Below, in pieces: positions 245 to 41,532 of a stretch of 64,000 nt of DNA; position 1 is the stretch's first letter, and every line of letters begins with the position of its first letter. Source of the stretch: Arthrobacter sp. HY1533 (lineage in GTDB: Bacteria > Actinomycetota > Actinomycetes > Actinomycetales > Micrococcaceae). The position numbers and the translations under genes were made by a program. The stretch is from NCBI RefSeq assembly GCF_027568515.1, contig NZ_JANKZF010000014.1, positions 1-64,000 of the forward strand. The letters are read 5' to 3'. The notes under the pieces are model-generated. The model was given only the letters and a program-made list of their open reading frames with translations, was not told the origin of the DNA and did not search any database.

Positions 245-2596
245 ATGACGTCAATGCCATGGCCCGGCGGCCGTGCGGCCGACGGCGAGGGCGGACCGGG
301 CAACCCGCCGCCGCACAGCCGGGACAACCTTGTCCTGGCCGCCCCCATCACCGGGTGGGAGGATGCGCTGCCGCTGGGCAACGGCCTGCTCGGCGGCCTG
401 CTGTGGGGCGGCGGGAACACCCTGCGCCTGTCCCTGGACCGGGGCGACCTCTGGGACGAGCGGACCAGCGGCGGGGAAGAATGGTGGAAACACCAACCCT
501 GGCACGCCGAAATCGAGGAACCCTGCCCCTGGGGCAAGTACTACAAGGGGCTCACGCCCACCAAGCTCCCCGCCGGGCGGCTTGAAATCACCTTCCCCGA
601 GGGGTCGAGCGTCGACTCCTTCGAACTGAACCTCGCCGATGCCCAGGCCAGCGCCCGCTTCAGTGACGGTTCCTGCGTCACTGCCATCTTCAGCGCCAAC
701 GAGCCCCTCGCGCTGGTGCGCACCGCCGGCGGACCGAGGCCGGGCGTCCGGCTGGTCCCGGCAGGCTCCGGCGGCGCCGACCAGGGCGCCTTGGCGGATG
801 CGAAAAGCGACGGGGCCGTGGCCGCCCTGGGCTACCCTCCCGCGCAAACCGGCAGCTCCGCGGACATGCAGTGGTACGTGCAGGACGCCGCCGGTGGCTT
901 CCAGTACTGCGTGTGCACCGCCGGCAGGCCGGACGGCGACGGCTGGGTCATGGCCATTGCCGTCACCACGAGCAACGACTGTGCACCCGGCCAGGACCTC
1001 CTGACCCTTGCCCGGCAGAGATGCACCGAAGCACTGGACCGCGGCCACGCCGAGATTTTCAGCGGCCACGCGGCATGGTGGCGTGGCTTTTGGGCGCAAT
1101 CATCCATTGAGGTGCCCGAACCCCACCTCCAGCGCAGCCACCAGCTGACTCGGTACCTGTACGGGGCGGGCTCCCGCAAGGGCGCCCCGCCCATGCCGCT
1201 GCAGGGCGTCTGGACCGCGGACCACGGCGGACTGCCGCCGTGGAAGGGCGACTACCACAACGACCTCAACACCCAGCTGACATATTCGGCCTACCAGGCC
1301 GCCGGCAACTTCGAGGCGGGGGAGAGCTACCTGGACTTCCTGTGGGACCTGGCGCCGGCGTTCCGCCAGTTCGCCCGGGACTTCTACGGAACGGACGGAC
1401 TGGCCACCCCCGGCGTCATGTCGCTGGCCGGGCAGCCACTGGGCGGGTGGAGCCAATACTCCATGTCTCCCACCATGAGCGCATGGAATGCACAGCTCTT
1501 CCACCAGCACTGGCGGTACACGGGCAGCAGCAGTTTCCTGGCAGAACGTGCCTATCCGTGGTGCAGGGAGGTGGGGCAGTGCATGGAGGGGCTCCTGGTG
1601 GAGGACGGCGACGGAATCCTTGTGCTTCCCCGGTCCTCCTCGCCGGAAATCTTCGACAACAGCCAGAAGGCGTGGCTGCTGCCCAACAGCAACTACGACC
1701 TCATGTGCCTGAAAATGCTGTTCCTGTCCCTGCAGGAAATGGCCACTGCCCTGGGCCAACAGCCAGATGCCCGGCGCTGGCAGCAGCTGGCGGACGGGCT
1801 GGGCGACTACCATGTTGCCCCCGACGGCGAACTGCTGCTGGACCGCGAAACACCGCTGCGCGAAAGCCACCGCCACCTCTCCAACCTGATCGGCATCCAC
1901 CCCTTCAACCTCATCACCATTGAGGGAGGGGATGAGGACCGACGGCGCATCGGCGCATCCCTCGATGCCTGGGACAGCCTCGGCACCGACTGGTGGTGCG
2001 GGTACTCGTGGTCGTGGATGGGGTGCCTGCGGGCCCGGGTGGGCGACGGCGAGCAGGCCCTGAGGCACCTGGACGTCTTCACGCAGGCCTTCACTTCCCG
2101 CAACGGCTTCCACGTCAACGGCGACCAGAGCGGATCCGGTTTTTCCAAGTTCAGCTACCGCCCCTTCACCCTCGAGGGAAACTTTGCCGCCATGCAGGTG
2201 GTCCATGAAATGCTCCTGCAAAGCTGGAGCCCCACGCCGGGCACGGCCGGATCCGAAGTGGTCCGGGTGTTCCCCGCCATGCCGTGGCGCTGGCACGATG
2301 CCCGCTTCGGGGACCTCCGCGCCGAGGGCGGGCACCTGGTCTCCGCGCAGCGCGAAAACAACGCCACCACCTGGCTGAAAGTTGTGGCCGGGACGGATGG
2401 CACAGTGCGGATCCGCGACAACTTTGGCGGCCGGGAACCCCGCTGGTCCCTGCCCAGTGTCACCCGGGCCGGCAACAACTTTGAAGTGTTCCTCCTCCGC
2501 GGCCAAGCCGTGCAGGCCACCATGGACCGGCCCGCGTCGCCTCCGCCCGAGCCCGAAAATGCCGCAAGGCCCGTCATTCTCCAGGCAACGCCATGA
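245..2596 (+). CDS. GH95-like glycoside hydrolase (alpha-L-fucosidase family), cytoplasmic
   Basis: This 783-residue protein has the GH95 layout: an N-terminal beta-sandwich opening with the signature WEDALPLGNGLLGGLLWGG, then an alpha/alpha barrel from about residue 290 to 680. The barrel carries the conserved Asn-rich loop HNDLNTQ (H338-N339-D340-L341-N342), which in GH95 positions the catalytic water. GH95 enzymes remove terminal alpha-1,2-L-fucose (some act on L-galactose) from glycans; the substrate here is not proven. No signal peptide is seen, so it probably acts on imported oligosaccharides. ATG 245 was chosen over the in-frame TTG 227 because AGGGAG sits just upstream at 235-240. Its TGA overlaps the ATG of the next gene (ATGA), indicating translational coupling. 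Confidence 0.8.
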   Translation: MTSMPWPGGRAADGEGGPGNPPPHSRDNLVLAAPITGWEDALPLGNGLLGGLLWGGGNTLRLSLDRGDLWDERTSGGEEWWKHQPWHAEIEEPCPWGKYYKGLTPTKLPAGRLEITFPEGSSVDSFELNLADAQASARFSDGSCVTAIFSANEPLALVRTAGGPRPGVRLVPAGSGGADQGALADAKSDGAVAALGYPPAQTGSSADMQWYVQDAAGGFQYCVCTAGRPDGDGWVMAIAVTTSNDCAPGQDLLTLARQRCTEALDRGHAEIFSGHAAWWRGFWAQSSIEVPEPHLQRSHQLTRYLYGAGSRKGAPPMPLQGVWTADHGGLPPWKGDYHNDLNTQLTYSAYQAAGNFEAGESYLDFLWDLAPAFRQFARDFYGTDGLATPGVMSLAGQPLGGWSQYSMSPTMSAWNAQLFHQHWRYTGSSSFLAERAYPWCREVGQCMEGLLVEDGDGILVLPRSSSPEIFDNSQKAWLLPNSNYDLMCLKMLFLSLQEMATALGQQPDARRWQQLADGLGDYHVAPDGELLLDRETPLRESHRHLSNLIGIHPFNLITIEGGDEDRRRIGASLDAWDSLGTDWWCGYSWSWMGCLRARVGDGEQALRHLDVFTQAFTSRNGFHVNGDQSGSGFSKFSYRPFTLEGNFAAMQVVHEMLLQSWSPTPGTAGSEVVRVFPAMPWRWHDARFGDLRAEGGHLVSAQRENNATTWLKVVAGTDGTVRIRDNFGGREPRWSLPSVTRAGNNFEVFLLRGQAVQATMDRPASPPPEPENAARPVILQATP

Positions 2597-4572
2597 GCGC
2601 GCCTGCAGTCCGCAACCAGCACCCAGAAAGCACCCCCGGAACCATGAACTTCCCCCTACCCGACACCAATCTCAGCCCCATCACCGGATGGGGCAGGGAG
2701 CATTGGCTGCACTTTGCCGATGCGCAGCTGTTGGCCGTGCGGCCCTGGGCCAGTGCGGACCTGTCCCTCATCTTGCTGCCTGGCCGGCCCTCAGGTGCCG
2801 GTGAAGTGTCCGACGGGCTGGAAGGATTTGCCCGCACCTTCCTTGCCGCTGCATTCCGTGTTGCGGGGGAGGACGGCGGGGACCCGCACGGGCACCTGGA
2901 GCGGTACCGCCGCGGCCTGCTGGCAGGGACGGCCGGCACCTGGCCGCCCATCGTGACCCGTTCCCAGCCCATGGTCGAGGCCGCCTCCGTGGCCCTGGGC
3001 CTCCACCTCACCCGGGCATGGCTGTGGGACACGCTGACCGTTGCCGAACAGGACCAGGTGGCCGGCTGGCTGTCCGGTTCCTCCACGAGCGAGGTCAACC
3101 AAAACAACTGGGTGCTCTTTCCGCTCATCATCGCGGAGTTCCTTGCGGGGGTTGGCCGGGACCACAACGAGGGGCACATTTCCCATGGACTGGCCCGCCT
3201 CGAGGACTGGTACGTGGGCGGTGGCTGGTACCGCGACGGCGACGGCGACTTCTTCGACTACTACTGCGGCTGGGCCATGCACCTGTACCCGCTGCTGTGG
3301 CTGCGCATGCTGGAAACGCGAGACCCCGACAAGGCCGCCGCACTGCGGCCCCGCTTTGCCGCCCGGCTTGGGGAGTTCCTGCCGGACCACGTGGGATTCT
3401 TCGGCGGCAACGGATCTCCCGTTTTCCAGGGCCGCTCACTCATCTACCGCTACGCCGCCGTGGCGCCGCTGTTCATGGCCGAGCTGGCTGGCGTCCCCTC
3501 ACCCCTGTCCCCGGGCCAGCTGCGGCGCATCGCCAGCGGCGCCGCCAGGTTCTTTGCCGAAGGTGGCTCCTACGGCGCACCGGGGGAACCGCTTGGGCTC
3601 CCGTCACTGGGGTGGCAGGGCGAATTCCCTCCCATGGTCCAGTCTTACTCCGGCCCGGCCTCCCCGTTCTGGACCAGCAAGGCCTTCGTGGGCCTGCTGC
3701 TGCCCGCCGGGCACCCCGTGTGGACGGCTGTGGAGGAAGCCTCACCGGTGGAGGCAGCCGACAGCATTCGCCTGGCGCAGGGGCCGAACTTCCTGCTGGC
3801 GTCCACCGCGGCAGGCGGCATTGCCCGGGTCCTGAACCACGGCAGCGACAAGTACTACGGCCCGGGCCCGGAAAACGTGGAGTACAGCCGCCTGGCCTAC
3901 TCCAGCCACACGGCTCCCGTCTTTGATCCGCACAATGCCCTGGACAACCACATCGGCATCCTGGACAGCGCGGGCAACAGCTCCGTGCGCATGCGCATCC
4001 ACCGGCTGCCGGCAGGGGAGGACAGCATTGCCAGTTTCCACCGGCCCGTGTGGGGTCGCGACGACGAGGCCGAATCGCCGTGGCGGATCACCACCGCGAC
4101 CACCGCCGCCGGCAGTTATGAACTGCGGCTGCACGTGGTGACCCGCGCCGTTGAAAGGCACGACGGCGGCAACCCCGCCGGAGCCGCCCCGACAGTCCGC
4201 GAAGGCGGCTACGCCATCGCGGCAGACACCGTGGTTCAGTCGCTGGCCGTTGCGGCACGCCCGGGCGGCACGGCAGGGGCGAGCGCCTTCAAGGATGGGC
4301 TGCACAGCACCATTTGGCCGCTGGCGGGCTGGTCCGCGACAGGGGCGGCCGCCTCAACGGGCCTTTCACCGCTGGGGGAGCACGCCTGCGTGCCCTACCT
4401 CGAGGGTGCCTTTACTGGTTCCCGGTCCGTCTTCGCCACCCTCGTGTGCCTGGCGGGCACCGCCACGCAGGGCGTGCCGCGTGACATTGTGGTTGCCGAC
4501 GACGGCGGCAGCGTCACCGTCTCGGCCACGGCGCCCGACGGTCGGACGCTGAAGGTGTCGCTGGCCGCCTAG
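2593..4572 (+). CDS. DUF2264 family protein
   Basis: The 659-residue product matches the DUF2264 family along its length: NLSPITGWGREHW at the start, the family hallmark SDGLEGFARTFLAAAFR near residue 75-90, and the WLWDTL and YYCGWAMHLYPLLWL blocks. The N-terminal part of about 380 residues should fold as an alpha/alpha toroid, followed by a beta-rich C-terminal part, an arrangement typical of carbohydrate-active lyases or hydrolases. No biochemical activity is firmly established for the family. It shares an ATGA overlap with the GH95-like gene, so the two are co-translated and probably act on the same glycan. An alternative start is ATG 2644. No signal peptide is present. Confidence 0.85.
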   Translation: MSAPAVRNQHPESTPGTMNFPLPDTNLSPITGWGREHWLHFADAQLLAVRPWASADLSLILLPGRPSGAGEVSDGLEGFARTFLAAAFRVAGEDGGDPHGHLERYRRGLLAGTAGTWPPIVTRSQPMVEAASVALGLHLTRAWLWDTLTVAEQDQVAGWLSGSSTSEVNQNNWVLFPLIIAEFLAGVGRDHNEGHISHGLARLEDWYVGGGWYRDGDGDFFDYYCGWAMHLYPLLWLRMLETRDPDKAAALRPRFAARLGEFLPDHVGFFGGNGSPVFQGRSLIYRYAAVAPLFMAELAGVPSPLSPGQLRRIASGAARFFAEGGSYGAPGEPLGLPSLGWQGEFPPMVQSYSGPASPFWTSKAFVGLLLPAGHPVWTAVEEASPVEAADSIRLAQGPNFLLASTAAGGIARVLNHGSDKYYGPGPENVEYSRLAYSSHTAPVFDPHNALDNHIGILDSAGNSSVRMRIHRLPAGEDSIASFHRPVWGRDDEAESPWRITTATTAAGSYELRLHVVTRAVERHDGGNPAGAAPTVREGGYAIAADTVVQSLAVAARPGGTAGASAFKDGLHSTIWPLAGWSATGAAASTGLSPLGEHACVPYLEGAFTGSRSVFATLVCLAGTATQGVPRDIVVADDGGSVTVSATAPDGRTLKVSLAA

Positions 4573-5267: not shown

Positions 5268-5592
5268 GATGGCCTGATCCGGGGACGGCAACCAGTCCCA
5301 GGCCACCGCGTGTGCTCGCGAAAACCCTGGTTCCGGTGGTGGTGTTTTGATGGGTTGGAGGAAAGTGACTTCGAAGATGCCGATTTCATGTTTCCAAAAA
5401 CAAATATTCACGTTTTGTCGAGAGGGCGTTCCGGCAATCCAGCGCGTCGCGACACCCCAAGGCTGGCCAAATTCTGGTGGCTGCCTTCTTCCGCTGGCAA
5501 GCCTGCGGCCTTAACCTGATCGTAGGGGAAGGAACGGCGGGCAGCTTGCCTGCGTGTCACTGAGTGGTACGGGTTTCACCGTAGGGGGCCAG
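5268..5592. other. Intergenic region between divergent lipoprotein and IclR genes
   Basis: About 325 bp without a convincing gene. It is locally AT-richer around 5385-5420, which may hold the divergent promoters. I could not assign a clear -35/-10 pair or operator. Confidence 0.4.
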
Positions 5593-6396
5593 ATGGATGA
5601 CGGCACCGTGGTGGGACGGGCCTTGGAAATCATGAACGCGGTTGCCTTGCGCCTCCAGACGCCCCTCGCCGAGCTGGCGGCCAGGACCGGCATCCCGAAG
5701 CCCACCGCGCGTCGCATCGCCGAAGACCTCGTGCGGCGGCAGATTCTGGTGCGGGCGCCACACGGCTACGCCATGGGATGCGCCCTGGACCACTTCAGCC
5801 AGGCAGCGGCGTTGCAACGGATGTTCCCGGACGCCCACGAGCAACTCGTCGAGTTGCAGGCCCGCTGCGGCGGGAACGCCTGGTTCAGCGCCGTGGGGAG
5901 GACAGGAACCGCCGGCCCGGCACCTGTCGAGATGGTCCATGACGCCGGGCTCCCAGCCCCGGACGCAGCCCCGTGGCCGGATCTGACGAACCCCAAAAAC
6001 CTTGTCAACACGGCAGCAGGACACCTCGTGCTGGCGCACAGGCCGGAACTTCTGGAACAAGTCGCGCGCACCGGCCTGCCGCGGGCGACTCCCTATTCCC
6101 CCGCAACCGTCCGCCAGCTCGAGGGCATCCTGCGGCAGATACACGAGCTCGGTGCCTCGGTGGAGTCCGAACAGTACATGCTCGGCTGGCGGTGCGTGGC
6201 GGTCCAGTTCCGTGGGCCGGGCGACAGCAGGGTCATCCTCGGGGTTTCCGCACCAACCGGGCGCAGCGATCCGGCACGGATGCTGAAGGCAACCCTGCAA
6301 GCCGCAGCATCAATGCAGGCCTCCGCGGGATCGCCCCCGGCCAACACGGCGGGTCCCGGAGCCGCCATTCACACTATGGTTCCACCGGCCCCGTGA
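5593..6396 (+). CDS. IclR-family transcriptional regulator
   Basis: A 267-residue protein with an N-terminal winged HTH (about residues 5-60: VVGRALEIMNAVA, then LAELAARTGIPKPTARRIAEDL). A C-terminal effector-binding half resembles the IclR ligand domain, including a GWRCVAVQF-type strand and a VILGVSAPTGR strand. ATG 5593 is preferred over GTG 5554 because AGGGGG lies 4 nt upstream (5583-5588) and IclR proteins normally begin shortly before the HTH. The target is unknown: neighbours are a divergent lipoprotein gene and a convergent aminopeptidase gene. The last 30 residues are low-complexity and Pro/Ala-rich. Confidence 0.8.
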   Translation: MDDGTVVGRALEIMNAVALRLQTPLAELAARTGIPKPTARRIAEDLVRRQILVRAPHGYAMGCALDHFSQAAALQRMFPDAHEQLVELQARCGGNAWFSAVGRTGTAGPAPVEMVHDAGLPAPDAAPWPDLTNPKNLVNTAAGHLVLAHRPELLEQVARTGLPRATPYSPATVRQLEGILRQIHELGASVESEQYMLGWRCVAVQFRGPGDSRVILGVSAPTGRSDPARMLKATLQAAASMQASAGSPPANTAGPGAAIHTMVPPAP

Positions 6397-6418
6397 GCCC
6401 CGCCGTCGTGACCGGGCG

Positions 6419-7923: not shown

Positions 7924-9621
7924 TTGAATTCACAGCACGTCCCGTTCGCCAACGATTCCTGGGCGTTCCTGATCGCCGATTCCCTGGAGAAGGTCCACCC
8001 CGACACGGACCCGCGGCCCCGCGACCCGTCCGTGCCCATGTCCACGTTTCTGGGCGAAACTCTCTCCTTCCAGGTGGCCATCCGCCCGCCGCTTCTCCGC
8101 TCCTTCCGCCCCACGAGCGGCCTGACGCTCAGCGTTGGCGGCGCATTGGGGGCCAACGCCGCCATCCACCAGGCCGAGCTGGTGCCCTGCGCGCTCGCAG
8201 CCTTCCCTGACCATGACGGCGGCTACGACCGCGACACCCCGGGCCTCTACCCGGACCTGCTGCGCCCCAGGCCCGACGGCGGCATCAAGCCCCTGATCGG
8301 CGGCTGGACCTCGGCCTGGATCGACATCACGGTGGACGACGGGGCGCTGGCAGGCAGCCATGAAGTTCCCGTCAGCGTCACCTCGGCCACGGGCCAGACG
8401 CTTTTCCAGGACACCATCACCATCACCGTCCTGGGCCGCCGCCTGCCCGAGCTGGCCATCGTCAATTCCCACTGGTTCCACTGCGACGGCCTGGCGAGCT
8501 ATTACGGCGTCGAGGTTTTCAGCGAGGAACACTGGGACGCGATTGATGCGTTCATTGCCTCGGCCGCGGACATGGGCGTCAACTCCCTGCTCACCCCCAC
8601 GTGGACGCCGCCGCTGGACACTGCCGTTGGCGGCGAGCGCCTGCCCACCCAGCTCATTGGCATCACGGACGACGGCGGGGAGTACAGTTTCGACTTCAGC
8701 CTCCTGGAGCGCTGGCTCGGCATCTGTGCGCGCCACGGCATCAAGCACCTGGAGATCGCCCACCTGTTCACCCAGTGGGGGGCCGGCTTCACCCCTGCCA
8801 TCTACGTCACCACGGAATCTGGCAGTGAACGGCGTTTTGGCTGGGATGTGCCGGCCACGGACCCCTCCTACCGCACGCTCATGGCCGCGCTCCTGCCGGA
8901 ACTGCGTGCCGTGCTGGCCCGGCACTGGTCGCTGGAGAAGGTGTTCTTCCACATCTCCGACGAACCGCACGGGGAGGAGGCACTGGCCAGCTACCTGGCC
9001 GCCAAGGCAGTTGTGGCGGACCTGCTTGAGGGGCTCGAGGTGGTGGATGCCCTCAGTGACTACGCCTTTTACACCAGCGGTGCGGTGCCCCGCCCGATAG
9101 TGGCGACGGACGCCGTCGGGCCTTTCATGGACGCCGGCATGGACAGGCTGTGGGTGTACTACTGCACGGCGCAGGAGGTGGGCGTTGCCAACCGCTTCAT
9201 CGCCATGCCGTCGGCCCGGAACCGGGTCCTGGGCCACCAGTTGTTCGCCATGAACTGCTCGGGATTCCTGCACTGGGGGTTCAACTTCTACAACAACGTC
9301 CATTCCGTGAGCCCCATCGACCCCTTCCAGGACACCTGCGCCGGGGGCGGCTTCCAGGGCGGGGACTCCTTCATGGTCTACCCGGGCACCTCAGGCACTC
9401 CGTGGGCGTCGATCCGCTACAAGGTCTTTGCCCAGGCCATGGCCGACCACCGGGCCTTCACCCTGCTGGAGGAACTCGCCGGCCGGGACGCCGTCATGGA
9501 CATCATCAACCACAACGGCCAGGGCGGGCCGCTGGCCATGGACAGCTTCGACTACGACCCCGTCCACTACCTGCGCAGCCGCGAACTGGTCAACGCGGCC
9601 ATTGCGGCGGCCACACCGTGA
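7924..9621 (+). CDS. DUF4091 / GH123-like glycoside hydrolase
   Basis: The 565-residue product resembles DUF4091 proteins, which correspond to the catalytic half of GH123 beta-N-acetylgalactosaminidases. An N-terminal beta domain (to about residue 170) is followed by a TIM-barrel with NSHWFHCDGLASYY and the acid pair D346-E347 in FHISDEPHG. In GH123 such an Asp-Glu pair performs substrate-assisted cleavage of beta-HexNAc. DUF4091 as a whole is little characterised, so the substrate is inferred. No signal peptide: a cytoplasmic enzyme. The TTG start at 7924 is used; ATG 8038 would cut into the N-terminal domain. Directly followed by a GH20 gene. Confidence 0.75.
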   Translation: MNSQHVPFANDSWAFLIADSLEKVHPDTDPRPRDPSVPMSTFLGETLSFQVAIRPPLLRSFRPTSGLTLSVGGALGANAAIHQAELVPCALAAFPDHDGGYDRDTPGLYPDLLRPRPDGGIKPLIGGWTSAWIDITVDDGALAGSHEVPVSVTSATGQTLFQDTITITVLGRRLPELAIVNSHWFHCDGLASYYGVEVFSEEHWDAIDAFIASAADMGVNSLLTPTWTPPLDTAVGGERLPTQLIGITDDGGEYSFDFSLLERWLGICARHGIKHLEIAHLFTQWGAGFTPAIYVTTESGSERRFGWDVPATDPSYRTLMAALLPELRAVLARHWSLEKVFFHISDEPHGEEALASYLAAKAVVADLLEGLEVVDALSDYAFYTSGAVPRPIVATDAVGPFMDAGMDRLWVYYCTAQEVGVANRFIAMPSARNRVLGHQLFAMNCSGFLHWGFNFYNNVHSVSPIDPFQDTCAGGGFQGGDSFMVYPGTSGTPWASIRYKVFAQAMADHRAFTLLEELAGRDAVMDIINHNGQGGPLAMDSFDYDPVHYLRSRELVNAAIAAATP

Positions 9622-30852: not shown

Positions 30853-30967
30853 TTTTGAGTATCCGCCCGCGTGATTCAAATTACAAGGGTTCGACGGAAG
30901 GTTCATGGAAGCTGCTGCGGTCAGCGGGGTCCGGGTGTGCGCGAGGTTTAGCGACTGCCCCGGGACC

Positions 30968-31023: not shown

Positions 31024-31040
31024 GAACAGGCTCGACCACC

Positions 31041-31092
31041 AAAAAAGGGCGCCGGGCTTGAATTTCTTCAAGTCCGGCGCCCTTGCTTTTTT
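31041..31092. terminator. Bidirectional Rho-independent terminator of the wall-anchored GH101 gene
   Basis: Arms 31045-31062 and 31067-31084 pair over 18 bp with one G-T (AAGGGCGCCGG outer end) and a TTTC loop. An A6 run on the left and a T6 run on the right make it functional in both directions. On the minus strand it ends the 31116-36524 gene. Confidence 0.85.
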
Positions 31093-34100: not shown

Positions 34101-36524
34101 CTGGCCGGAAACTGTTGCGGAGAGTGTGGTCTCACGCTTGCCGCGCGGGTAGCTTTCCTGCGAGTTGGCAGAGGGGTCAATTTCAACCCAGGCGCTCACG
34201 GAGTAGGTGCCCTTCGTCAGGCCGTCGAGCTGCTGGGTAATGCCCGACGCCGTTGCGCCGAGTTTCGCGGCCGTCAGGCCCTTGGCGGAGGTGCTCAGGG
34301 TGACATCGCCTGTGGCGTTCCAGGCGGCGAGGTTGCCGGAGTTGAATCCGGGGTCCTTGATTCCCGTGCCCTGGCCCCATGCGGTGGCCGTGTTGTCCGG
34401 AACCGTTGCGAGTGCGGAGGTGGGTGCGAGCACGTAGGCGGTGTTGGCCTTCGGGTTGAGCGTGATGCCGCCGCCAACAACGTTGACGGGGCCCACGAGC
34501 TTGCGGCCCTGGGGTGTCAGCTCGTAGACGTTCAGCGCTGCCTGGGTGGCGAATTCGGGGGTCAGCTTCCAGTTCTGAGTGCCGCCGGCCAGACTGTAGT
34601 TGTACAGCTTGCCCTGCTTGTCCACGTCGTGGCTGGCTTCCTCGCCGAATTCAACGAGTTCACTGGACCAGGGCAGCAGGTAGTTGTGGCCGTCCAGGAC
34701 CTTCACGCCGTCCTGGGTGATGACGCGATCCTCCAGCGAGTTGCCGGTGACGCTCACGTTGTTTTCCAGCTTGATGGCGTCAGGGGTCCAGGACTTGATT
34801 TCCTGCTGCTGCAGGAACTTGGCGGGAACGTTGTTGTCCCACACGTTCTTCAGGAACGCGTTGTAGTCGTTCTGGCCTGTCCAGCCCTGCCACTCCACCA
34901 GGTGAGGGGTGCCCAGGCGCGGGTCCGGGTTCCAGGTGTCACGCTGGGTGTTCTGGGCAAAGCGCAGGATCTGCGAGTTCCAGCCCTTGTTTGCCGTGCC
35001 ACCGTATTTTTCATCCACGGCCCAGTGTGACCAGGTGTTGTTGCGGACCATGTAGTTGGCCCACTCGGAGGAAACGGAGTAGCCGGCCTCGATCATGTTG
35101 CGCTGCAGGCGCTCGCCAACCCAGCCCGTCTCGTAGTAGACGTCAATGTAGTTGGTGGTCAGGTTGTCATTGACGTTGCCGGCCATGCCGCTGATGCGGG
35201 TCTTCTGGTCACCGGAGAGAACGTCGCGGCGCTGGTCAATGAAGTAGGCCTGTTCCAGCCAGTTCCAGTTCTTGGCCGGGGGCTGGCTGATGAAGGTGTC
35301 GCTGAACGCCTTGGACGCGGGGTAGGCCTCGGTGTTGTTCATGTGCACGCTGAATGTGGCACCGTACTTCTTGGACTGTTCCAGCAGCGTGTTCATGTCC
35401 TTCAGGCCGCCGGCACGTTCATTCCAGTTGTCATTGAAGTCCGTGTTGGCGGAGTCGTGGCCTTCGGAGGTGAAGCCCTTCAGGAGGTTCAGCTGGCCCA
35501 GGCCGTCGGTGGCCAGGGACACGTGCTTGACGTCGTCCAGGGTGCGCAGGAACGGGTTGGTTGCCTGGCTGGCGAAGTTGAACGGGATGGTCTGGACGAC
35601 GCGGTTCTTGACATCCTCCCAGCCGTAGGGCTTGATCTGGATGTCGCGGGAGGCGACGGCGCCATCCTGCCAGTTGACGGTGCCGTCGGCGTTCGCGTCG
35701 GCGGTGATGACCACCTTGGCCATGGGCAGCGGTTCGGTCTCCGTGGAGTCTTTGGCCCGGTACAGCCAGGCGCCGGAGGAAATGCCAACCTTCTTGTTGG
35801 CGCCGTCGGTCTTGACCTGGCGCCAGAAGCGTCCCTGATCCGCGGCGGAGAGGGTCTTTTCGGCAGCGCTGTAGGCGCCGTCGTACATCGAGTTGGACTC
35901 GAAGCCTGCGGCCAGCTCCGCCGTGTTGGCAATGGCCACCATGGAGGTCTTGGCTGCTGCGTCCACCGCTGCGGCCGCGTCGATGGCGGTGATGGTGTCG
36001 CCGCTCTTGGCCCGGTCAACCGACACGACGGCCGTGGCCAGGCTTGCGCCGGCCTGCGTGGAGGACAGGGTCACCAGGTCCTGGTCCATGATCTGGATCC
36101 GGTTGACCTTGGCGGCACCGGTCTCCTTGATCTCCGTGATGTTGAAGGTCAGGACGTTGCCCTCCACGGAGAGCTTGGCCTTCATGCTTACCCCGGCCAT
36201 GCCGGGAACGGTGATGTCATAGGCGATCGACTTCTTGTCGCCGCTGACCGCGGAGGTCACGGTGACCGCCTGGTCCACGCCGTTGATGCGCATCTGGGTG
36301 GCGACGGCGGTGGCGCCTGTCATGGACTTGCCGGCGAGTGTGTACTTCAGCGCCTGGGGGAACGCGGTGGAGACCTCCACGGACAACGGCCCGGAGGTGA
36401 TCACCTCCGTTCCCGGCGCCGCGAGGGCCGGCATGGCTGCAGCGATGGGAACGATGGTGCCGGCCAGGACGGCGCCGGCAACCCCCATCCCCATCCACTT
36501 GCGGTGGTGTCGAGCGAGTGACAT
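31116..36524 (-). CDS. Cell-wall-anchored GH101 endo-alpha-N-acetylgalactosaminidase with two NPCBM domains
   Basis: ATG 36524 (AAGGAG 7 nt upstream) gives 1802 residues. A signal peptide (MSLARHHRKWMGMGVAGAVL, ending near ALA) leads to the GH101 core, with candidate nucleophile D461 (NYIDVYYETGW) and acid/base E487 (SSEWANYMV). Beta modules follow, then an NEW3-like domain, two NPCBM domains (about 1175-1318 and 1420-1575; KGLGVHAPSNIKYFVG and KGLGVHADSSIRFYLG) and a (S/T-A-T-P) linker (about 1576-1655). An Ig-like domain and the sorting signal LASTG (1767-1771), hydrophobic helix and RRRRTHG tail close the protein. The LAXTG form suits class E sortases of actinobacteria. It cleaves core 1 O-glycans at the cell surface, unlike its unanchored neighbour. 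Confidence 0.92.
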   Translation of the reverse strand: MSLARHHRKWMGMGVAGAVLAGTIVPIAAAMPALAAPGTEVITSGPLSVEVSTAFPQALKYTLAGKSMTGATAVATQMRINGVDQAVTVTSAVSGDKKSIAYDITVPGMAGVSMKAKLSVEGNVLTFNITEIKETGAAKVNRIQIMDQDLVTLSSTQAGASLATAVVSVDRAKSGDTITAIDAAAAVDAAAKTSMVAIANTAELAAGFESNSMYDGAYSAAEKTLSAADQGRFWRQVKTDGANKKVGISSGAWLYRAKDSTETEPLPMAKVVITADANADGTVNWQDGAVASRDIQIKPYGWEDVKNRVVQTIPFNFASQATNPFLRTLDDVKHVSLATDGLGQLNLLKGFTSEGHDSANTDFNDNWNERAGGLKDMNTLLEQSKKYGATFSVHMNNTEAYPASKAFSDTFISQPPAKNWNWLEQAYFIDQRRDVLSGDQKTRISGMAGNVNDNLTTNYIDVYYETGWVGERLQRNMIEAGYSVSSEWANYMVRNNTWSHWAVDEKYGGTANKGWNSQILRFAQNTQRDTWNPDPRLGTPHLVEWQGWTGQNDYNAFLKNVWDNNVPAKFLQQQEIKSWTPDAIKLENNVSVTGNSLEDRVITQDGVKVLDGHNYLLPWSSELVEFGEEASHDVDKQGKLYNYSLAGGTQNWKLTPEFATQAALNVYELTPQGRKLVGPVNVVGGGITLNPKANTAYVLAPTSALATVPDNTATAWGQGTGIKDPGFNSGNLAAWNATGDVTLSTSAKGLTAAKLGATASGITQQLDGLTKGTYSVSAWVEIDPSANSQESYPRGKRETTLSATVSGQPAVTNTTNSSALFNTVAADQKNSTFTQRVRVLIDVKNDGDRPTVTFSAPAGATAVLIDDFRVVKTQHVTAADVVDGAPAGVVLAEDFENVDQGWGPFVKGNAGGKTDPRTHLAPIHAPYTQKGWNGKLTDNVLDGKFSLLSHEENSGLAYRTTPATMAFKPGRDYEISFDYQASKANEYTWVGGYDGAAGAVQTQSTPIPMKQETTRWVQNFTASACGDSYVGLLRNGSVATDFSLDNLLIRDLGASTNTPACAQLSLGQTGPIIEQDAPNEFTTTLVSNEPAGVSNAKVSLELPEGWTATATTANTAATLAPGGKLVTKWAVDAPATADGNYTIKAKSTYTTTVAPVGSRTAEATLGVYTMPNPPTKDTFASDMQWIGTPTNGWGPAEKDFNNGEQGEKDGQGIMLDNQLYAKGLGVHAPSNIKYFVGSQCSAFKAVIGIDDKQATRGSVIFKILGDGNEIYNSGLLTATSAALPINVDLKGSRYVELVVDPTADLNGNDWADWADAKFICSDDAPALALAPAINPAGPLEQGKSYTVTVGELKAATEATFSLGNTELGKATANAEGIATYTYKVAADAALGAGTINVAGTDKNSKAATGSVAISTVGAPPPAPTKDSFASDLEFVGTPVNEWGPVERDLNNGENGKGDGAAIIIDAKTYPKGLGVHADSSIRFYLGAQCTSFSAVVGIDDAKLPKAHRGHVVFTAVGDGKNLATSPELTVDDAGYKFTADVTGVRYIDLNVAKIKVGGLNGDEWADWADAKFSCGTTVPTATPTATPSATPSATPSATPSATPSATPSATPSATPSATPSATPSATASATPSATASATASASPSASATASTAPTGAAGGSISATTVAPGGELTITGKNFKPGTKATFTLHSKPVLLGTAVVAKDGSVTLTAKLPANVPAGKHTVVIAGTGTDGKPAKFSIALTVTGGTASQPATAGAATTAASADDLASTGANGVLPILAIALLALFGGAATILVRRRRTHG
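31600..31797 (-). repeat. Low-complexity coding repeat (SATP linker)
   Basis: Degenerate 12-bp units encode about nine consecutive SATP tetrapeptides, flanked by TATP and SATA variants. They form an extended, probably wall-spanning stalk between the second NPCBM and the Ig-like domain. Copy number may vary between strains by slippage. Confidence 0.75.
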
Positions 36525-36630
36525 CAAGAACTCCTTGAACAACTTTGTTACGGGCAAGCGGCGTTTTGCGCGCTTGGCTGATGGCGCGTATGGCTGGACG
36601 GGGGAGTGCCGGCTATGAGCTGGATCACTC

Positions 36631-36644
36631 TGTTATCCATAACA
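36631..36644 (-). promoter_or_regulatory. Palindromic operator-like motif upstream of the wall-anchored GH101
   Basis: TGTTATCCATAACA has perfect 6-bp arms around CC and lies 107 bp before the start codon. A degenerate second copy (core TATGGAT) lies at 36651-36664. The same motif precedes the other GH101 gene, suggesting one shared regulator. Confidence 0.6.
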
Positions 36645-36781
36645 TCGTATCAGTATGGATTATTTGCGAGCCGGGCGACAAGTCATTTTGCTTGCGTGGC
36701 CCTTTTGTTTCGCCCCGTAGGCGTGGAGCGGGACTGGTGAAGTTTGGCGTAACAATGATTGAACTTGACGTTTTGATCTCA

Positions 36782-36815
36782 TAAATGATCATTTAGTGCT
36801 AGTATTGATGTCAAT
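36782..36815 (+). promoter_or_regulatory. agaS promoter with two palindromes
   Basis: A perfect 14-bp palindrome TAAATGATCATTTA (36782-36795) lies immediately upstream of an extended -10 TGCTAGTAT (36797-36805). A second palindrome, ATTGATGTCAAT (36804-36815), overlaps its downstream edge. These are good candidate operators for the DeoR protein encoded at the operon's end. Confidence 0.55.
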
Positions 36816-36878
36816 GACCCGTTTCCCGCCGGGACTTGCGCGGCCGGGATGAAAAACACTCAAGGAGAAATGCACAGC

Positions 36879-37784
36879 ATGAGCGAGAACAACCAGCTTG
36901 GCCCCTTCATGGACGCCGAACTCACCAGCCAGCCGGACGTTTGGACGCAGGCAATTGCCCAGGCCAAGAGTGAAAATCTGCTGCCCGCCGACGGCGCCCG
37001 CGTGGCCGTGATTGGCTGCGGCACCTCCTGGTTCATGGCCCAGAGCTACGCCACCGCCCGTGAAACCGCCGGCAAGGGCGTCACCGATGCCTTCGCGGCC
37101 TCGGAAGCCTTCCTGGGTGCCGACCGCGGCTACGACGCCGTCATCGCCATCACGCGCTCCGGCACCACCACCGAGGTGCTGGAAATCCTCACGGCCATCC
37201 AGGGCACCGTGCGCACCGTTGCCCTGGTGGGCGACACCTCCTCGCCGATCATGGCGCTGGCCGATGCCGTCGTCGAGCTTCCCTACGCCGACGAGCAGTC
37301 AGTGGTCCAGACCCGCTTCGCCACCACCGCACTGACCTACCTGCTGACCAGCATCGGCGTGGACCTCAGCGACGCCGTCGAGGATGCCAAGCTGGCCGTG
37401 GTTGCCCCCGTCGAGCAGGAACTCATTGACGCCGAGCAGTTCACCTTCCTGGGCACCGGCTGGACCGTGGGCCTGGCCCACGAGGCCGGTTTGAAGATGC
37501 GCGAAGCCGTGCAGGGCTGGACCGAGTCCTACCCCGCCAAGGAATACCGCCACGGACCGATCTCCATCGCCGCCCCGAACCGCGTCACCTGGATGTTCGG
37601 CGAGCAGCCCGAGGGCCTGGACCGCGACATGGTCAAGACCGGCGCGCTGTACATCAACACCACCGTGCACCCGCTGGCCGAACTGGCCCGCGTCCACCGC
37701 GTCACCCTCGAGCGCGCCCGCGCCCGTGGCATGAACCCGGACCTGCCGCGCAACCTGACACGTTCGGTCATCCTGGACGCATAG
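36879..37784 (+). CDS. AgaS-like SIS-domain galactosamine-6-phosphate isomerase/deaminase
   Basis: A 301-residue protein with two SIS domains. The first has VAVIGCGTSWFMAQSYA and AITRSGTTTEVLEI; the second has FLGTGWTVGLAHEAGLKMRE and SYPAKEYRHGP, the phosphosugar-binding signatures of the AgaS/GlmS-C group. In GalNAc catabolism AgaS converts galactosamine-6-phosphate to tagatose-6-phosphate and ammonia. The downstream PfkB kinase and class II aldolase fit exactly this product. ATG 36879 is chosen because AAGGAG (36862-36867) is too close to ATG 36870. A terminator directly follows, separating it partly from the rest of the cluster. Confidence 0.82.
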   Translation: MSENNQLGPFMDAELTSQPDVWTQAIAQAKSENLLPADGARVAVIGCGTSWFMAQSYATARETAGKGVTDAFAASEAFLGADRGYDAVIAITRSGTTTEVLEILTAIQGTVRTVALVGDTSSPIMALADAVVELPYADEQSVVQTRFATTALTYLLTSIGVDLSDAVEDAKLAVVAPVEQELIDAEQFTFLGTGWTVGLAHEAGLKMREAVQGWTESYPAKEYRHGPISIAAPNRVTWMFGEQPEGLDRDMVKTGALYINTTVHPLAELARVHRVTLERARARGMNPDLPRNLTRSVILDA

Positions 37785-37809: not shown

Positions 37810-37851
37810 CAGGCGCCCCACTTTTTTCACCAAGTGGGGTGCCTGCTTTTT
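37810..37851 (+). terminator. Rho-independent terminator after agaS-like gene
   Basis: Arms CAGGCGCCCCACTT (37810-37823) and AAGTGGGGTGCCTG (37832-37845) form a 14-bp stem with one G-T, followed by C and T5. It lies inside the putative catabolic operon, so it probably lowers, rather than abolishes, expression of the downstream kinases. Confidence 0.85.
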
Positions 37852-37909
37852 GCCCAACCCCAAGCTGTCCCTCTTTGCCCAGTGCGCCGCCCTTAAAGAA
37901 ACAGAGTCC

Positions 37910-38887
37910 ATGAACACCTTGACAAACCCTGCCGGCGAAACCGGTGCCCCGACCACTGATGCCAACGGCAGCGGCGTGGTCCTGGCCTTCGACATTGGCG
38001 GCACGGACATGAAGGTCGGCATCGTGCGCGGCGGGCCCGACGGCGACGGCGTGGAGGTTGTGGACGTGCAGCGCCACCCCACGCCCCTGGAGGCCGGCCG
38101 CACGGGCGAGAGCGTGTGCGAGCGGATCGTGGAGCTCACCGGCGAATACCGTGCGGCACACCCGGAACTGATCATCTCCGCCGTGGGCGTGACGGTGCCC
38201 GGAATTGTTGACGAGGACGCCGGCATCGGCATCTACTCGGCCAACCTGGGCTGGAAGGACTTCCCCTTCACATCCACCCTGACCGCGGCCCTGGGCCTGC
38301 CCGTCGGGTTCGGGCACGACGTCAGCATGGCCGGGGAGGCGGAATTCCGCCTCGGCGCGGCCGTGGGCAAGACGGACGTGCTGATCCTTGTCATCGGCAC
38401 CGGCATTGCCGGCGCCGTGCTGTGCGACGGCCACCGCGTGGCCGGCGGCGGCTACGCCGGGGAGATCGGCCACGCCATGGTGCCCGCCCCCGGCGGCGGC
38501 ATGGCCATCATGGAGTCCCTCGGTTCGGCCGGCGCCATTGCCCGCCGCTACACCGAGGCCACCGGCACGGCAGTGTCCGGCGCCCGCGACGTCCTGGCAC
38601 TCGCGGGGGAGGGCGACGCCGCGGCGAAGGCCGTCTGGACCGATGCCATCGACGCCCTGGCCTTCAGCATTGCCCAGTGCGTGTCCATCCTGGGCACGGA
38701 AACCGTTGTCCTCGGCGGCGGGCTGTCCATGGCCGGGCCGGTGCTCTTCGACGCCCTGGCCGCGCGGGTTGACGAACTGCTCACCTTCCACCGCCGCCCC
38801 GAATACGTGCACGCCGCTCTCGGCGAGAACGCGGGCCTGATCGGCTCCGCGCTCAAGGCCCGCAGCCTTGTCGGGACGCACGCATGA
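37910..38887 (+). CDS. ROK-family sugar kinase (candidate GalNAc/galactosamine kinase)
   Basis: A 325-residue ROK kinase with the ATP phosphate motif AFDIGGTDMKVGIV, the catalytic Asp in GFGHDVSMAGEAEF, and ILVIGTGIAGAVLCDG. The zinc-binding segment usual after GEIGH (CxCGxxGCxE) is replaced by a cysteine-free PAPGGGMAIMESLGS. This is rare among glucokinase-type ROK proteins and suggests a divergent substrate group. Context implies phosphorylation of GalNAc or galactosamine, not shown by sequence. ATG 37910 is used; upstream in-frame codons lie in the terminator. Its stop overlaps the PfkB start (ATGA). Confidence 0.78.
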   Translation: MNTLTNPAGETGAPTTDANGSGVVLAFDIGGTDMKVGIVRGGPDGDGVEVVDVQRHPTPLEAGRTGESVCERIVELTGEYRAAHPELIISAVGVTVPGIVDEDAGIGIYSANLGWKDFPFTSTLTAALGLPVGFGHDVSMAGEAEFRLGAAVGKTDVLILVIGTGIAGAVLCDGHRVAGGGYAGEIGHAMVPAPGGGMAIMESLGSAGAIARRYTEATGTAVSGARDVLALAGEGDAAAKAVWTDAIDALAFSIAQCVSILGTETVVLGGGLSMAGPVLFDALAARVDELLTFHRRPEYVHAALGENAGLIGSALKARSLVGTHA

Positions 38888-39843
38888 ACAACCTGGTCCT
38901 GACCGTCACGCCCAACCCGGCCGTCGACGTCACGTACACCGTGGCCGGAGTCAACCTGGGCTCCTCGCACCGCGTGCCAACGCCGCTGCACAGGGCCGGG
39001 GGCAAGGGCCTGAACGTGTCCCGCGTGGCTCAGCAGCTGGGCCACCCCACGCTGGCCATCGCCACAGCCGGCGGCACCTCCGGCGAGGAACTGCGCCAGG
39101 ACCTGGACGCGGCCGGCATCGCACACCACCTGGTGCCCGTCGCCGCAGCCACCCGGCGCACCGTGGCCCTGGTGGACACAGCGGACAACAACACCACAAG
39201 CATCTTCAACGAAGTTGGCCCGGCCCTGTCCGGCGCCGAATGGCAGGCCCTGGCCGCGGCCGTGGTGGACAACCTTGCAGGCGTCCAGACGTCCGACGGC
39301 GTGAGCCGCCCGGGCGTGCTGGTGGGCTCGGGCTCCCTCCCAGACCAGGCCCCCGCCGACTTCTACCCCGCACTCGTGGCACTGGCCCACGCTGCCGGGG
39401 TCCCGGCCATCATCGACACCTCCGGCGCCGGCATCCTGGCCGCCGCCAGGGCCGGGGCGGACCTGCTCAAGCCCAACAACCACGAGCTGCTGGAAGCCGT
39501 GGGGGAGCCAGACCTGCCCACGGCCGCCCGCAAGCTCATGGACCTCGGCGCCAAGCGCGTCCTGGTGAGCGTTGGCGAGGAAGGCATGCTCGCCTTCAGC
39601 GCCGATGCACCCGGCTACATCCAGGCCAAGCTCCCGGCACCGCTGAGCGGCAACCCCACGGGCGCGGGCGACGCTGCGGTGAGCGCGGCCGCCGTCGCGC
39701 TTGCCAACGGCGTCACCGACTTGCGCGAGATTTTGGTCCAGGCCACCGCCTGGAGCGCAGCCGCAGTCCTCATGCCAGGCGCCGGGGAAATTTCCCCCGA
39801 GTATGCCGAACTGGCCAAGCAACTCATCATCACAGACCACTAA
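38884..39843 (+). CDS. PfkB-family kinase, probable tagatose-6-phosphate kinase
   Basis: A 319-residue PfkB protein of the 1-phosphofructokinase/LacC subgroup: LTVTPNPAVDVTYTV at the N-terminus, RAGGKGLNVSRVAQQLG (substrate Gly-rich motif), LLKPNNHEL, and the anion-hole/catalytic PTGAGDA near residue 260. In this context it should phosphorylate tagatose-6-phosphate to the 1,6-bisphosphate; 1-phosphofructokinase activity is the alternative. Translationally coupled to the ROK kinase (ATGA) and 13 bp before the aldolase. Confidence 0.82.
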   Translation: MNNLVLTVTPNPAVDVTYTVAGVNLGSSHRVPTPLHRAGGKGLNVSRVAQQLGHPTLAIATAGGTSGEELRQDLDAAGIAHHLVPVAAATRRTVALVDTADNNTTSIFNEVGPALSGAEWQALAAAVVDNLAGVQTSDGVSRPGVLVGSGSLPDQAPADFYPALVALAHAAGVPAIIDTSGAGILAAARAGADLLKPNNHELLEAVGEPDLPTAARKLMDLGAKRVLVSVGEEGMLAFSADAPGYIQAKLPAPLSGNPTGAGDAAVSAAAVALANGVTDLREILVQATAWSAAAVLMPGAGEISPEYAELAKQLIITDH

Positions 39844-39856
39844 GGACCGAAACTTC

Positions 39857-40705
39857 ATGGCTTTGACCAACACCCGCGACATCATGGACCTGGCCGCCAA
39901 GGCCGGCACGGGCCAGGGCGCGTTCAACGTGATCCACCTGGAAACCATCGAGGGGCTCATCGGCGGCGCCGAGGCAGCCGGACTGCCCGTGATCTTGCAG
40001 ATTTCCGAGAACTGCGCCAAGTTCCACGGCGGGCTGGAGCCCGTGGCCGCCGCCACCCTGGCCGCCGCCCGGCGCGCAAGCGTTCCCGTTGCCGTGCACC
40101 TGGACCACGCCGAGTCCGAGGACCTGGCCTATGAGGCCGTGGACCTGGGCTTCGGCTCGGTCATGTACGACGGCGCGCACTTCGAGTACGAGCAAAACGT
40201 TGAGGTTACTGCCCGCGTGGCCGCCTACGCCCACGAGCGCGGCGTGTACGTTGAGGCCGAACTGGGCAAGGTGGGCGGCAAGGACGGCGCACACGCCCCC
40301 GGCGTGCTGACCGACCCGGCCGAGGCCGCCGCATTTGTGGCCGCCACCGGCGTCGACGCGCTGGCCGTGGCCGTGGGTTCCTCGCACGCCATGACCGAGC
40401 GCAGCGCCGCCCTGAACCTGGCCCGCATTGCCGAGTTGAAGGCCGCCCTTGAAGTTCCGCTCGTGTTGCACGGCTCCTCAGGCGTTTCGGATGCGAACAT
40501 TGTTGCAGCGATTGCGGCCGGAATGACCAAGATCAACGTCTCCACCCACCTGAACGGCTTCTTCACCCGCGCCGTGCGGGAGTTCCTGGATGCCAACCCG
40601 GCCGTGGTGGATTCACGCAAGTACCTGGGGGCCGGCCGCGACGCGCTGGTTCCCGAAGTGTCGCGGCTGCTGGCGCTGTTTGCCGGCACCGAAGCAGCCA
40701 ACTAA
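39857..40705 (+). CDS. Class II aldolase, probable tagatose-1,6-bisphosphate aldolase
   Basis: A 282-residue zinc-dependent aldolase of the FbaA/GatY/KbaY family: catalytic Asp and zinc His in VAVHLDHAESEDL, EAELGKVGGKDG, the Gly/His loop VLHGSSGVSDANI and the phosphate site TKINVSTHL. The length equals KbaY/GatY (about 284), shorter than typical FbaA. It splits tagatose- or fructose-1,6-bisphosphate to DHAP and glyceraldehyde-3-phosphate. ATG 39857 follows AAGGA (39842-39846). The pathway position after PfkB supports the tagatose assignment. Confidence 0.85.
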   Translation: MALTNTRDIMDLAAKAGTGQGAFNVIHLETIEGLIGGAEAAGLPVILQISENCAKFHGGLEPVAAATLAAARRASVPVAVHLDHAESEDLAYEAVDLGFGSVMYDGAHFEYEQNVEVTARVAAYAHERGVYVEAELGKVGGKDGAHAPGVLTDPAEAAAFVAATGVDALAVAVGSSHAMTERSAALNLARIAELKAALEVPLVLHGSSGVSDANIVAAIAAGMTKINVSTHLNGFFTRAVREFLDANPAVVDSRKYLGAGRDALVPEVSRLLALFAGTEAAN

Positions 40706-40740: not shown

Positions 40741-41532
40741 ATGAACAGAACAGAACGGCTCACCGCAATCTTGGACATCCTCGCCGCCGACGGGCAGGTG
40801 GAGGTCGAGGAGATTGTCGACAAGCTGGCCGTTTCCCCGGCCACGGCCCGGCGCGACCTGGACTCGCTGGCCAATGAGCGGCTGCTCACGCGCACGCGCG
40901 GCGGTGCCACCAGCGGCTCTGTTTCCTACGACCTGCCCGGGCGGTACAACCGCGACGACTTCGCCGTGCAAAAGCAGCAGATCGCGCATGCGGCCAGCGC
41001 CCTGATCCCCAAGGGTGCTGTCATCGGCCTGTGCGGCGGCACCACCAGCACGGCCCTGGCCCAGGTGCTCTCCACCCGCGAGGACCTCATGGAGCACTCC
41101 AACAGGCCCACGCTGACGGTGGTCACCAACGCGATCAACATTGCCGCGCAGTTGGCCATCCGGCCCAACTTCAAGATCATGGTGACCGGCGGGATCGTGA
41201 ACCCGCGCTCCTACGAGCTGGTGGGCCCCTATGCCGACTCGATCCTGTCACGTGTTGCCCTGGACTTCGCCTTCATCGGCGTCAACGGCCTGGAGCCGGG
41301 CGCCGGACCCACAATCAACGACGAGGGCGAGGCTTCGGTCAATTCCAAGATGGCCCGGCGCGCCTCCGAGGCGTACATCCTGGCTGACTCCTCCAAGATC
41401 GGCAAGCGGGCCTTCGCCACGATGGACCAGACCAACTTTGGCAACATCATCACTGACTCCGGGATCACCCCGGCACAGCTGCAGGCGTTCGAGGACGCCG
41501 GCACCAATGTGATTGTGGCCCCCGAGCTCTAA
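40741..41532 (+). CDS. DeoR-family regulator of the GalNAc cluster
   Basis: A 263-residue DeoR protein with an N-terminal HTH (RTERLTAILDILAADGQVEVEEI, then SPATARRDLDSLANERLLTRTRGGA) and a C-terminal sugar-phosphate sensor domain (LIPKGAVIGLCGGTTSTALA, DFAFIGVNGLEP, ADSSKIGKRAF). It closes the agaS-to-aldolase cluster, like AgaR in enterobacteria. Its likely inducer is a phosphorylated intermediate. The palindromes in front of agaS are plausible sites. Confidence 0.85.
   Translation: MNRTERLTAILDILAADGQVEVEEIVDKLAVSPATARRDLDSLANERLLTRTRGGATSGSVSYDLPGRYNRDDFAVQKQQIAHAASALIPKGAVIGLCGGTTSTALAQVLSTREDLMEHSNRPTLTVVTNAINIAAQLAIRPNFKIMVTGGIVNPRSYELVGPYADSILSRVALDFAFIGVNGLEPGAGPTINDEGEASVNSKMARRASEAYILADSSKIGKRAFATMDQTNFGNIITDSGITPAQLQAFEDAGTNVIVAPEL

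What the first reader, a model, noticed from the sequence alone, without database searches (positions are those of the whole stretch)
245..41532. A 41-kb region enriched for mucin-type/host glycan breakdown in an Arthrobacter-like genome
Within 41 kb lie a GH95-like fucosidase, a DUF2264 protein, a GH123-like and a GH20 hexosaminidase (all without signal peptides), and a formylglycine-generating enzyme. Two secreted GH101 endo-alpha-GalNAcases and a GalNAc-type catabolic cluster follow. The families fit defucosylation, removal of beta-HexNAc, activation of sulfatases, release of core 1 disaccharide and GalNAc use. Such a set is expected in gut commensals, not in free-living Micrococcaceae. Importer, sulfatase, sialidase and galacto-N-biose phosphorylase are absent here and would have to be elsewhere.
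Basis: partly seen in the sequence, partly recalled or inferred. Interest (0 to 1): 0.7.

Follow-up and report, generated by a model that had tools for sequence, protein, structure and literature searches.

The report
Soil bacterium's mucin-sugar regulon

Summary
The listed genes are present, but they form two systems. (A) Two GH101 endo-alpha-GalNAcases lie beside a GalNAc catabolic operon. A palindrome, TGTTATNNATAACA, precedes 20 of 21 GH101 genes of the genus exactly and the last with one mismatch. It has 67 exact sites in 23 genus genomes (reversed control: none). 64 lie at five gene classes: GH101 (20), cytosolic GH35 beta-galactosidase, usually divergent from a LacI gene (21), importer gene ngcE (21), an M66/StcE-type protease (1), a secreted GH95 (1). 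Best reading: a LacI-type regulon for mucin-type O-glycoproteins, which supplies protease, importer and galactosidase missing from the window. (B) The left glycosidases (GH95-like, DUF2264/GH154, GH123, GH20) continue past the contig edge into an ABC importer, GH110 and GH123_N; relatives add LacI, Gfo/Idh/MocA and sometimes a sulfatase. No palindrome lies at these genes. The GH95-like protein belongs to a sub-family with an altered catalytic residue, seen mostly in free-living bacteria. GH101 is not unexpected here: 16 of 23 genus and 36 of 295 family genomes have it. Binding, induction and substrates are inferred, not shown.

The parts
36631..36644 (.). Perfect palindrome TGTTATCCATAACA, predicted LacI-type operator of GH101 no. 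2
30839..30852 (.). TGTGATCCATAACA (1 mismatch), predicted operator of GH101 no. 1
31116..36557 (-). GH101 no. 2 (type 2): GH101 catalytic domain, two NPCBM domains, C-terminal LASTG sorting-type tail (tail read by eye, sortase link recalled)
26155..31071 (-). GH101 no. 1 (type 1), two F5/8 type C domains; ORF over-long, likely start near 30750
36757..36793 (+). AT-rich element recognisable, with variation, in the 13 aligned regions (window included) in front of the GalNAc operon; candidate DeoR site
36849..37784 (+). SIS-domain sugar-phosphate deaminase/isomerase (GlmD-like, far below the equivalog cut-off); ATG near 36879
37850..38887 (+). ROK-family sugar kinase, proposed GalNAc kinase
38884..39843 (+). 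PfkB-family hexose kinase (TIGR03168 over cut-off), proposed tagatose-6-P kinase
39701..40705 (+). Class II ketose-bisphosphate aldolase (TIGR00167 over cut-off); likely start near 39857
40741..41532 (+). DeoR-family regulator (AgaR model 141 bits, below cut-off 260)
1..176 (+). 3' end of a Gfo/Idh/MocA gene; first 127 bases identical to the end of contig C36 (cluster B)
227..2596 (+). GH95-like protein, cluster B, sub-family with Asp to Glu change
2593..4572 (+). DUF2264 / former GH154 protein, cluster B
5554..6396 (+). IclR-family regulator, cluster B surroundings
7924..9621 (+). GH123 beta-N-acetylgalactosaminidase-like, no signal peptide seen by eye, cluster B
9639..11111 (+). GH20 hexosaminidase-like, cluster B
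21862..22800 (-). Formylglycine-generating enzyme (SYLCHDSYCNRY motif), a neighbour conserved at this place in genomes with and without cluster B

Best explanation
System A is a LacI-type regulon for mucin-type O-glycoproteins. Outside the cell an M66/StcE-type protease, a secreted GH95 and one or two GH101 endo-alpha-GalNAcases (one with a sorting tail) open the glycoprotein and release Gal-beta-1,3-GalNAc. NgcEFG imports it. A cytosolic GH35 splits it, which would make a GH112 phosphorylase unnecessary. GalNAc then passes through the ROK kinase, a NagA-like deacetylase encoded elsewhere (C30), the SIS deaminase, the PfkB kinase and the aldolase, under the neighbouring DeoR protein. The LacI protein next to GH35 is proposed to repress the target genes by binding TGTTATNNATAACA until an imported sugar releases it. 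Shown: the gene families, the palindrome and its placement across 23 genomes, and a LacI ortholog in 23 of 23 (one, G143, with a stop inside). Inferred: LacI binding, the inducer, the imported sugar, GH35 specificity, and use on real mucin. System B is a separate intracellular glycosidase cluster behind its own ABC importer, acting on another, probably sulfated or uronic, HexNAc-, fucose- or galactose-containing oligosaccharide.
For: Palindrome found by aligning 13 GalNAc-operon upstream regions. Own genome: 4 exact sites in 4.3 Mb, control 0: GH101; ngcE (TIGR03851, 587.6 bits, cut-off 399.65); GH35 divergent from LacI; M66+TagA protease with HELGHSYGLGH. Genus: 67 exact sites in 23 genomes, control 0 in 23: GH101 20, GH35 21, ngcE 21, M66 1, secreted GH95 1, other 3. 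Of the 21 GH101 genes in the genus 20 have an exact site and the window's no. 1 a 1-mismatch site. G128 and G170, without an exact GH35 site, have a 1-mismatch one, making GH35 23 of 23; LacI is divergent from GH35 in 22 of these, not in G143. LacI ortholog 71-100% in 23 of 23. Own secreted GH95 has a 1-mismatch site about 58 bp upstream, its G239 ortholog an exact one. M66 ortholog of G202 has a 1-mismatch site; that of G255, which lacks GH101, has none. In G143, where GH101 lies about 4.7 kb from the SIS gene, the site stays with GH101. Cluster B continues across the contig edge and has no such site at its own glycosidase or importer genes.
Against: No expression, binding or enzyme data. The 20 GH101 sites are partly by construction, since the pattern was derived there. 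The ngcE sites lie 296-402 bp upstream of the start, far for a repressor. An RpiR gene is beside ngcE in 21 of 21 loci and could be the binder. NgcE is named for GlcNAc/chitobiose, not galacto-N-biose. G202 and G052, which have GH101, have no exact ngcE site. The LacI match of G143 has a stop inside and is not divergent from GH35. M66 full-length orthologs exist in only 4 of 23 genomes, and that of G247, which has GH101, shows only a 3-mismatch site. The NagA-like protein is below its cut-off and shows no palindrome near its start. Three of 67 sites lie at other genes (SBP_bac_5, LuxR-type response regulator, F5/8C-ricin protein). In G221 a gene with a 1-mismatch site lies inside cluster B. 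No sialidase search was made.
Confidence: 0.72

Rival explanations
1. The palindrome is bound by the RpiR-family regulator beside ngcE, or by another amino-sugar regulator, and the set is a general amino-sugar (GlcNAc/GalNAc) regulon in which O-glycans are only one source.
For: RpiR beside ngcE in 21 of 21 loci; NgcE equivalog is a GlcNAc/chitobiose binder; the 7 of 23 genomes without GH101 all keep an exact ngcE site.
Against: GH35 carries the site in 23 of 23 genomes and LacI is divergent from it in 22; outer TG/CA with a central CG (29 of 67) fits LacI-family operators (recalled); several members (GH101, M66, GH35) point to Gal-GalNAc glycoproteins.
Confidence: 0.2
2. One reading: one 41-kb host-glycan island, with left glycosidases and GH101 acting together on mucin.
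For: Proximity in the window; in G263 the GH95 ortholog lies about 15 kb and in G221 its broken ortholog about 18 kb from GH101; in G221 a gene with a 1-mismatch palindrome lies inside cluster B; GH110, GH123 and GH20 families could act on blood-group or GalNAc-bearing glycans (recalled).
Against: Separate importer and, in relatives, separate LacI; no shared operator at the B glycosidases; independent gain and loss; GH95 ortholog and GH101 1 Mb apart in G239.
Confidence: 0.12
3. Cluster B degrades a sulfated or uronic polysaccharide of environmental origin (algal, plant or glycosaminoglycan) rather than mucin.
For: GH154-type proteins are proposed uronate dehydratases (PMC12269599); sulfatase in G231 and its ortholog in G221; GH110 present; the 80 best of 166 GH95 relatives are mostly Verrucomicrobia, Planctomycetes, Armatimonadetes and Bacteroidetes such as Pedobacter, several from lakes by title.
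Against: No unsaturated uronyl hydrolase (GH88/GH105) among the cluster proteins scanned; GH95 neighbourhoods across phyla share few families; no sulfatase next to it in the window or in G263; the substrate cannot be read from sequence; nearest GH123 structures are named beta-GalNAcases.
Confidence: 0.5

Closest known systems
Bifidobacterial GH101 plus galacto-N-biose pathway (recalled)
   Same: Secreted GH101 releases core 1 disaccharide, which is imported and used
   Different: No GH112 match in the genome (though no control rang); a cytosolic GH35 and a tagatose-type GalNAc route instead; different importer family and operator
aga/gam GalNAc operons with AgaR (recalled; S. pneumoniae AgaR paper PMC5018945 seen only as listing and start of abstract)
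   Same: Deaminase, tagatose-6-P-type kinase, aldolase and a DeoR regulator
   Different: Deaminase is nearest GlmD in NCBIfam, ROK kinase and ABC import instead of PTS, deacetylase not in the operon, GH101 beside it
B. thetaiotaomicron PUL BT4240-50 (PMC11992087, passages read)
   Same: O-glycoprotein processing with a GalNAc kinase
   Different: The paper says GH101 is not annotated in B. theta; here a LacI-type operator and ABC import in an actinobacterium
StcE/TagA M66 mucinases (recalled)
   Same: PF10462 and TagA domains, HExxHxxGxxH motif
   Different: Ricin-B lectin and DUF7507 domains; activity untested

Membership tests
GH101 endo-alpha-N-acetylgalactosaminidase | PF12905 catalytic domain with the flanking GH101 domains | tested here: met
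   415 and 366 bits over cut-off 25, plus PF18080, PF17451, PF17974 and PF21466
GH101 endo-alpha-N-acetylgalactosaminidase | Catalytic Asp and Glu | tested here: inconclusive
   YID and SEW motifs seen; assignment rests on recall of the pneumococcal enzyme
GH95 alpha-fucosidase (window 227-2596) | PF22124 domain, acid Glu and base Asn | tested here: met
   180 bits; E and N in 77 of 77 aligned rows; residue roles recalled
GH95 alpha-fucosidase (window 227-2596) | Asp that activates the base (QIDGN) | tested here: not met
   Glu in 76 of 77 rows, one gap; Asp in both other own GH95s; so called GH95-like
GH154 / DUF2264 | PF10022 domain | tested here: met
   and (8oi4, 9o4u, 9nwf)
GH154 / DUF2264 | Uronate dehydratase activity | not testable with these tools
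   proposed for the family in PMC12269599
M66 StcE-type mucinase | PF10462 domain and zinc motif HExxHxxGxxH | tested here: met
   motif as family mark recalled
LacI-family regulon | One operator shared by targets and by the promoter region of the regulator, conserved across genomes | tested here: met
   LacI beside the site in 22 of 23 genomes, not in G143
LacI-family regulon | The regulator binds the operator | not testable with these tools
   needs a binding assay
Bifidobacterial galacto-N-biose pathway | GH112 phosphorylase | tested here: inconclusive
   no match in own genome, but no control genome rang
Formylglycine-generating enzyme | FGE-type sequence including the paired active-site cysteines | tested here: met
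   397 bits to 6muj, SYLCHDSYCNRY aligned; role of the cysteines recalled
aga GalNAc operon | AgaA deacetylase in the operon | tested here: not met
   the adjacent amidohydrolase is HutI; NagA-like protein at C30, below cut-off

The most novel reading that the evidence does not exclude
Arthrobacter as a genus has a LacI-controlled regulon for mucin-type O-glycoproteins that runs from an M66 protease and endo-alpha-GalNAcases through NgcEFG import and GH35 cleavage to tagatose-type GalNAc catabolism, without GH112, so free-living soil actinobacteria are an unrecognised class of O-glycoprotein consumers.
Probability: 0.5. Interest if true: 0.72.

Novelty: new variant of a known kind. Interest (0 to 1): 0.6.

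Why it matters
Mucin O-glycan breakdown is studied mainly in gut and pathogenic bacteria (general knowledge). A conserved operator linking GH101, an M66 protease, an importer and GH35 in soil Arthrobacter would give a testable non-gut model, suggest GH35 as a replacement for galacto-N-biose phosphorylase, and offer the palindrome as a search key for further O-glycan enzymes, such as the uncharacterised F5/8C-ricin proteins found behind it.

Tried and rejected
Amidohydrolase 24822-26051 as the missing GalNAc-6-P deacetylase: rejected, it is HutI. FGE as part of a mucin desulfation unit: not supported, because it sits at this place also in genomes without the GH95 ortholog. The window GH95 as the defucosylating enzyme of the GH101 system: rejected in favour of the secreted GH95 on C10. 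Gene neighbourhoods of 80 GH95 relatives (the best 80 of 166) as a guide to the substrate of cluster B: led nowhere firm, since the families vary by phylum; a GH95 frame was counted in 76 of the 80 loci. A gapped DeoR pattern scan used a wrong spacing, missed even the window's own element, and its empty result is not used; the element is placed. Paper searches listed no report of this regulon in Arthrobacter in the held library; subscription papers are mostly not held. Passages were read in PMC12269599 and PMC11992087 only; the others were seen as listings with starts of abstracts. No structure prediction was run.
Full report
1. Observation. The listed genes are present. The window is the start of contig C68, 163,502 bases long, of a 4.3-Mb genome in 68 contigs.

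2. How unusual is GH101 here? PF12905 is found in 36 of 295 family genomes, own included, and in 16 of the 23 of the same genus. The place between hutI and the SIS gene holds one of two GH101 types that are about 42% identical. Type 1 is there in five relatives (G182, G270, G096, G143, G221). Type 2 is there in seven (G024, G211, G247, G291, G202, G263, G239), and three more (G113, G284, G052) have type 2 beside SIS with hutI not checked. The window holds both in tandem. Whether that is insertion or ancestral tandem with loss cannot be told: GH101 no. 1 and the flanking SIS gene are about equally diverged from the type-1 species.

3. Operator. Aligning 13 upstream regions of the SIS gene showed a 14-base palindrome, TGTTATNNATAACA, on the GH101 side and a separate AT-rich element next to the SIS gene (36757-36793). 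In the window the palindrome is perfect at 36631 and has one mismatch at 30839, between the two GH101 genes; a third, 2-mismatch match at 28128 lies inside GH101 no. 1. Chance expectation for up to 2 mismatches is 0.14 per window. In G231, which has the SIS operon but no GH101, no exact site lies there. In G143, where GH101 is about 4.7 kb from SIS, the site is with GH101. So the palindrome goes with GH101 rather than with the GalNAc operon.

4. Regulon. The genome has 4 exact sites, reversed control 0. The other three lie at ngcE with two permease genes (C10), between a GH35 beta-galactosidase and a divergent LacI gene (C43), and in front of an M66/TagA protease with a ricin-B lectin (C66; the site is 18 bp before the over-long ORF and about 0.2 kb before the likely start). 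Genus-wide there are 67 exact sites in 23 genomes, control 0 in 23. I compared the surroundings of all 67 with the proteins of the own sites: GH101 20, GH35 21, ngcE 21, M66 1, secreted GH95 1, other 3. The pattern came from GH101 upstream regions, so those 20 are partly circular; the other 44 classed sites are not. G128 and G170 have a 1-mismatch site at their GH35/LacI pair, so GH35 has a site in 23 of 23 genomes; LacI is divergent from GH35 in 22 of them. The LacI ortholog is in 23 of 23 genomes at 71-100% identity, in G143 with a stop inside. Central bases are CG in 29 of 67. The own secreted GH95 (C10) has a 1-mismatch site about 58 bp upstream.

5. Against. The ngcE sites are 296-402 bp upstream of the start, and G202 and G052 have none that is exact. 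RpiR is beside ngcE in 21 of 21 loci. M66 orthologs are full length in 4 of 23 genomes; besides the own one, G202 has a 1-mismatch site, G247 a 3-mismatch one and G255 none, and G255 also lacks GH101. The NagA-like protein (209.9 bits, cut-off 225.65) is elsewhere and shows no palindrome near its start. No GH112 was found, but the search had no ringing control. In G221 a secreted F5/8C-ricin gene with a 1-mismatch site lies inside cluster B.

6. Cluster B. In G231 it runs GH123_N, GH110, two permeases, SBP, LacI, Gfo/Idh/MocA, GH95, 2-hydroxyacid dehydrogenase, DUF2264, sulfatase, PepC, then, after other genes, GH123 and GH20. G263 has the part from GH123_N to GH95, with FGE in it, and then PepC; G221 has GH123_N, importer, LacI, Gfo/Idh/MocA, a broken GH95 and a sulfatase 92% identical to that of G231, but no GH110 in the stretch. 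In the window's genome contig C36 carries GH123_N, GH110, two permeases and the SBP (84% to G263). C36 and C68 share an exact 127-base end from a Gfo/Idh/MocA gene, and contig C8 ends in the start of such a gene beside gatCAB and a second ABC importer. The order C8, C36, C68 is inferred from these ends and from relatives; the cluster's LacI was not found in the own stretches. GH110 best matches 8yk3 (431 bits); GH123 best matches 8k2l, named a beta-N-acetylgalactosaminidase (419 bits). DUF2264 matches 8oi4 and two proteins named glucuronate dehydratases, in line with the proposal that GH154 are uronate dehydratases (PMC12269599, passages). The GH95-like protein has Glu for the usual Asp in 76 of 77 aligned rows. 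Of its relatives the 80 best of 166 are listed: four actinobacteria, otherwise mainly Verrucomicrobia, Planctomycetes, Armatimonadetes and Bacteroidetes, free-living as far as titles tell. The own-genome sulfatase search gave 7 places, one weak; of the five whose surroundings were fetched, the nearest to the G231 cluster sulfatase is at C16:478350, 67%.

7. Verdict. Two systems. The GH101 part is a probable LacI regulon for mucin-type O-glycoproteins; the left part is a separate importer-linked glycosidase cluster of unsettled substrate.

Noticed in passing
L253:661-3927 (-) and L066:3791-6091 (-): Secreted-looking F5/8C plus ricin-B proteins with no catalytic Pfam match lie behind an exact (G263) or 1-mismatch (G221) palindrome; possibly unknown O-glycan enzymes.
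   Followed up: partly
window 227-2596 and L111-L190: GH95-like sub-family with Glu in place of the usual Asp in 76 of 77 aligned rows.
   Followed up: partly
L196:4184-12420, L197:2186-10820: G202 and G113 carry a third GH101 type with a palindrome; beside it in G202 lies a beta-helix protein (weakly LnbX-like, LAVTG tail), in G113 a protein with a similar start that was not scanned.
   Followed up: no
window 1-176, L082:9635-9808, L191:6-110: Gfo/Idh/MocA gene apparently in two copies, breaking the assembly into C8, C36 and C68.
   Followed up: partly
L082:18-1697 and L062:13897-15579: 560-aa lipoprotein-type solute-binding protein of cluster B: own copy has no NCBIfam match and one marginal PDB match, G263 copy no Pfam match.
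   Followed up: no
L066, near 6400-7600: G221 carries a broken ortholog of the GH95-like gene at the corresponding place.
   Followed up: no
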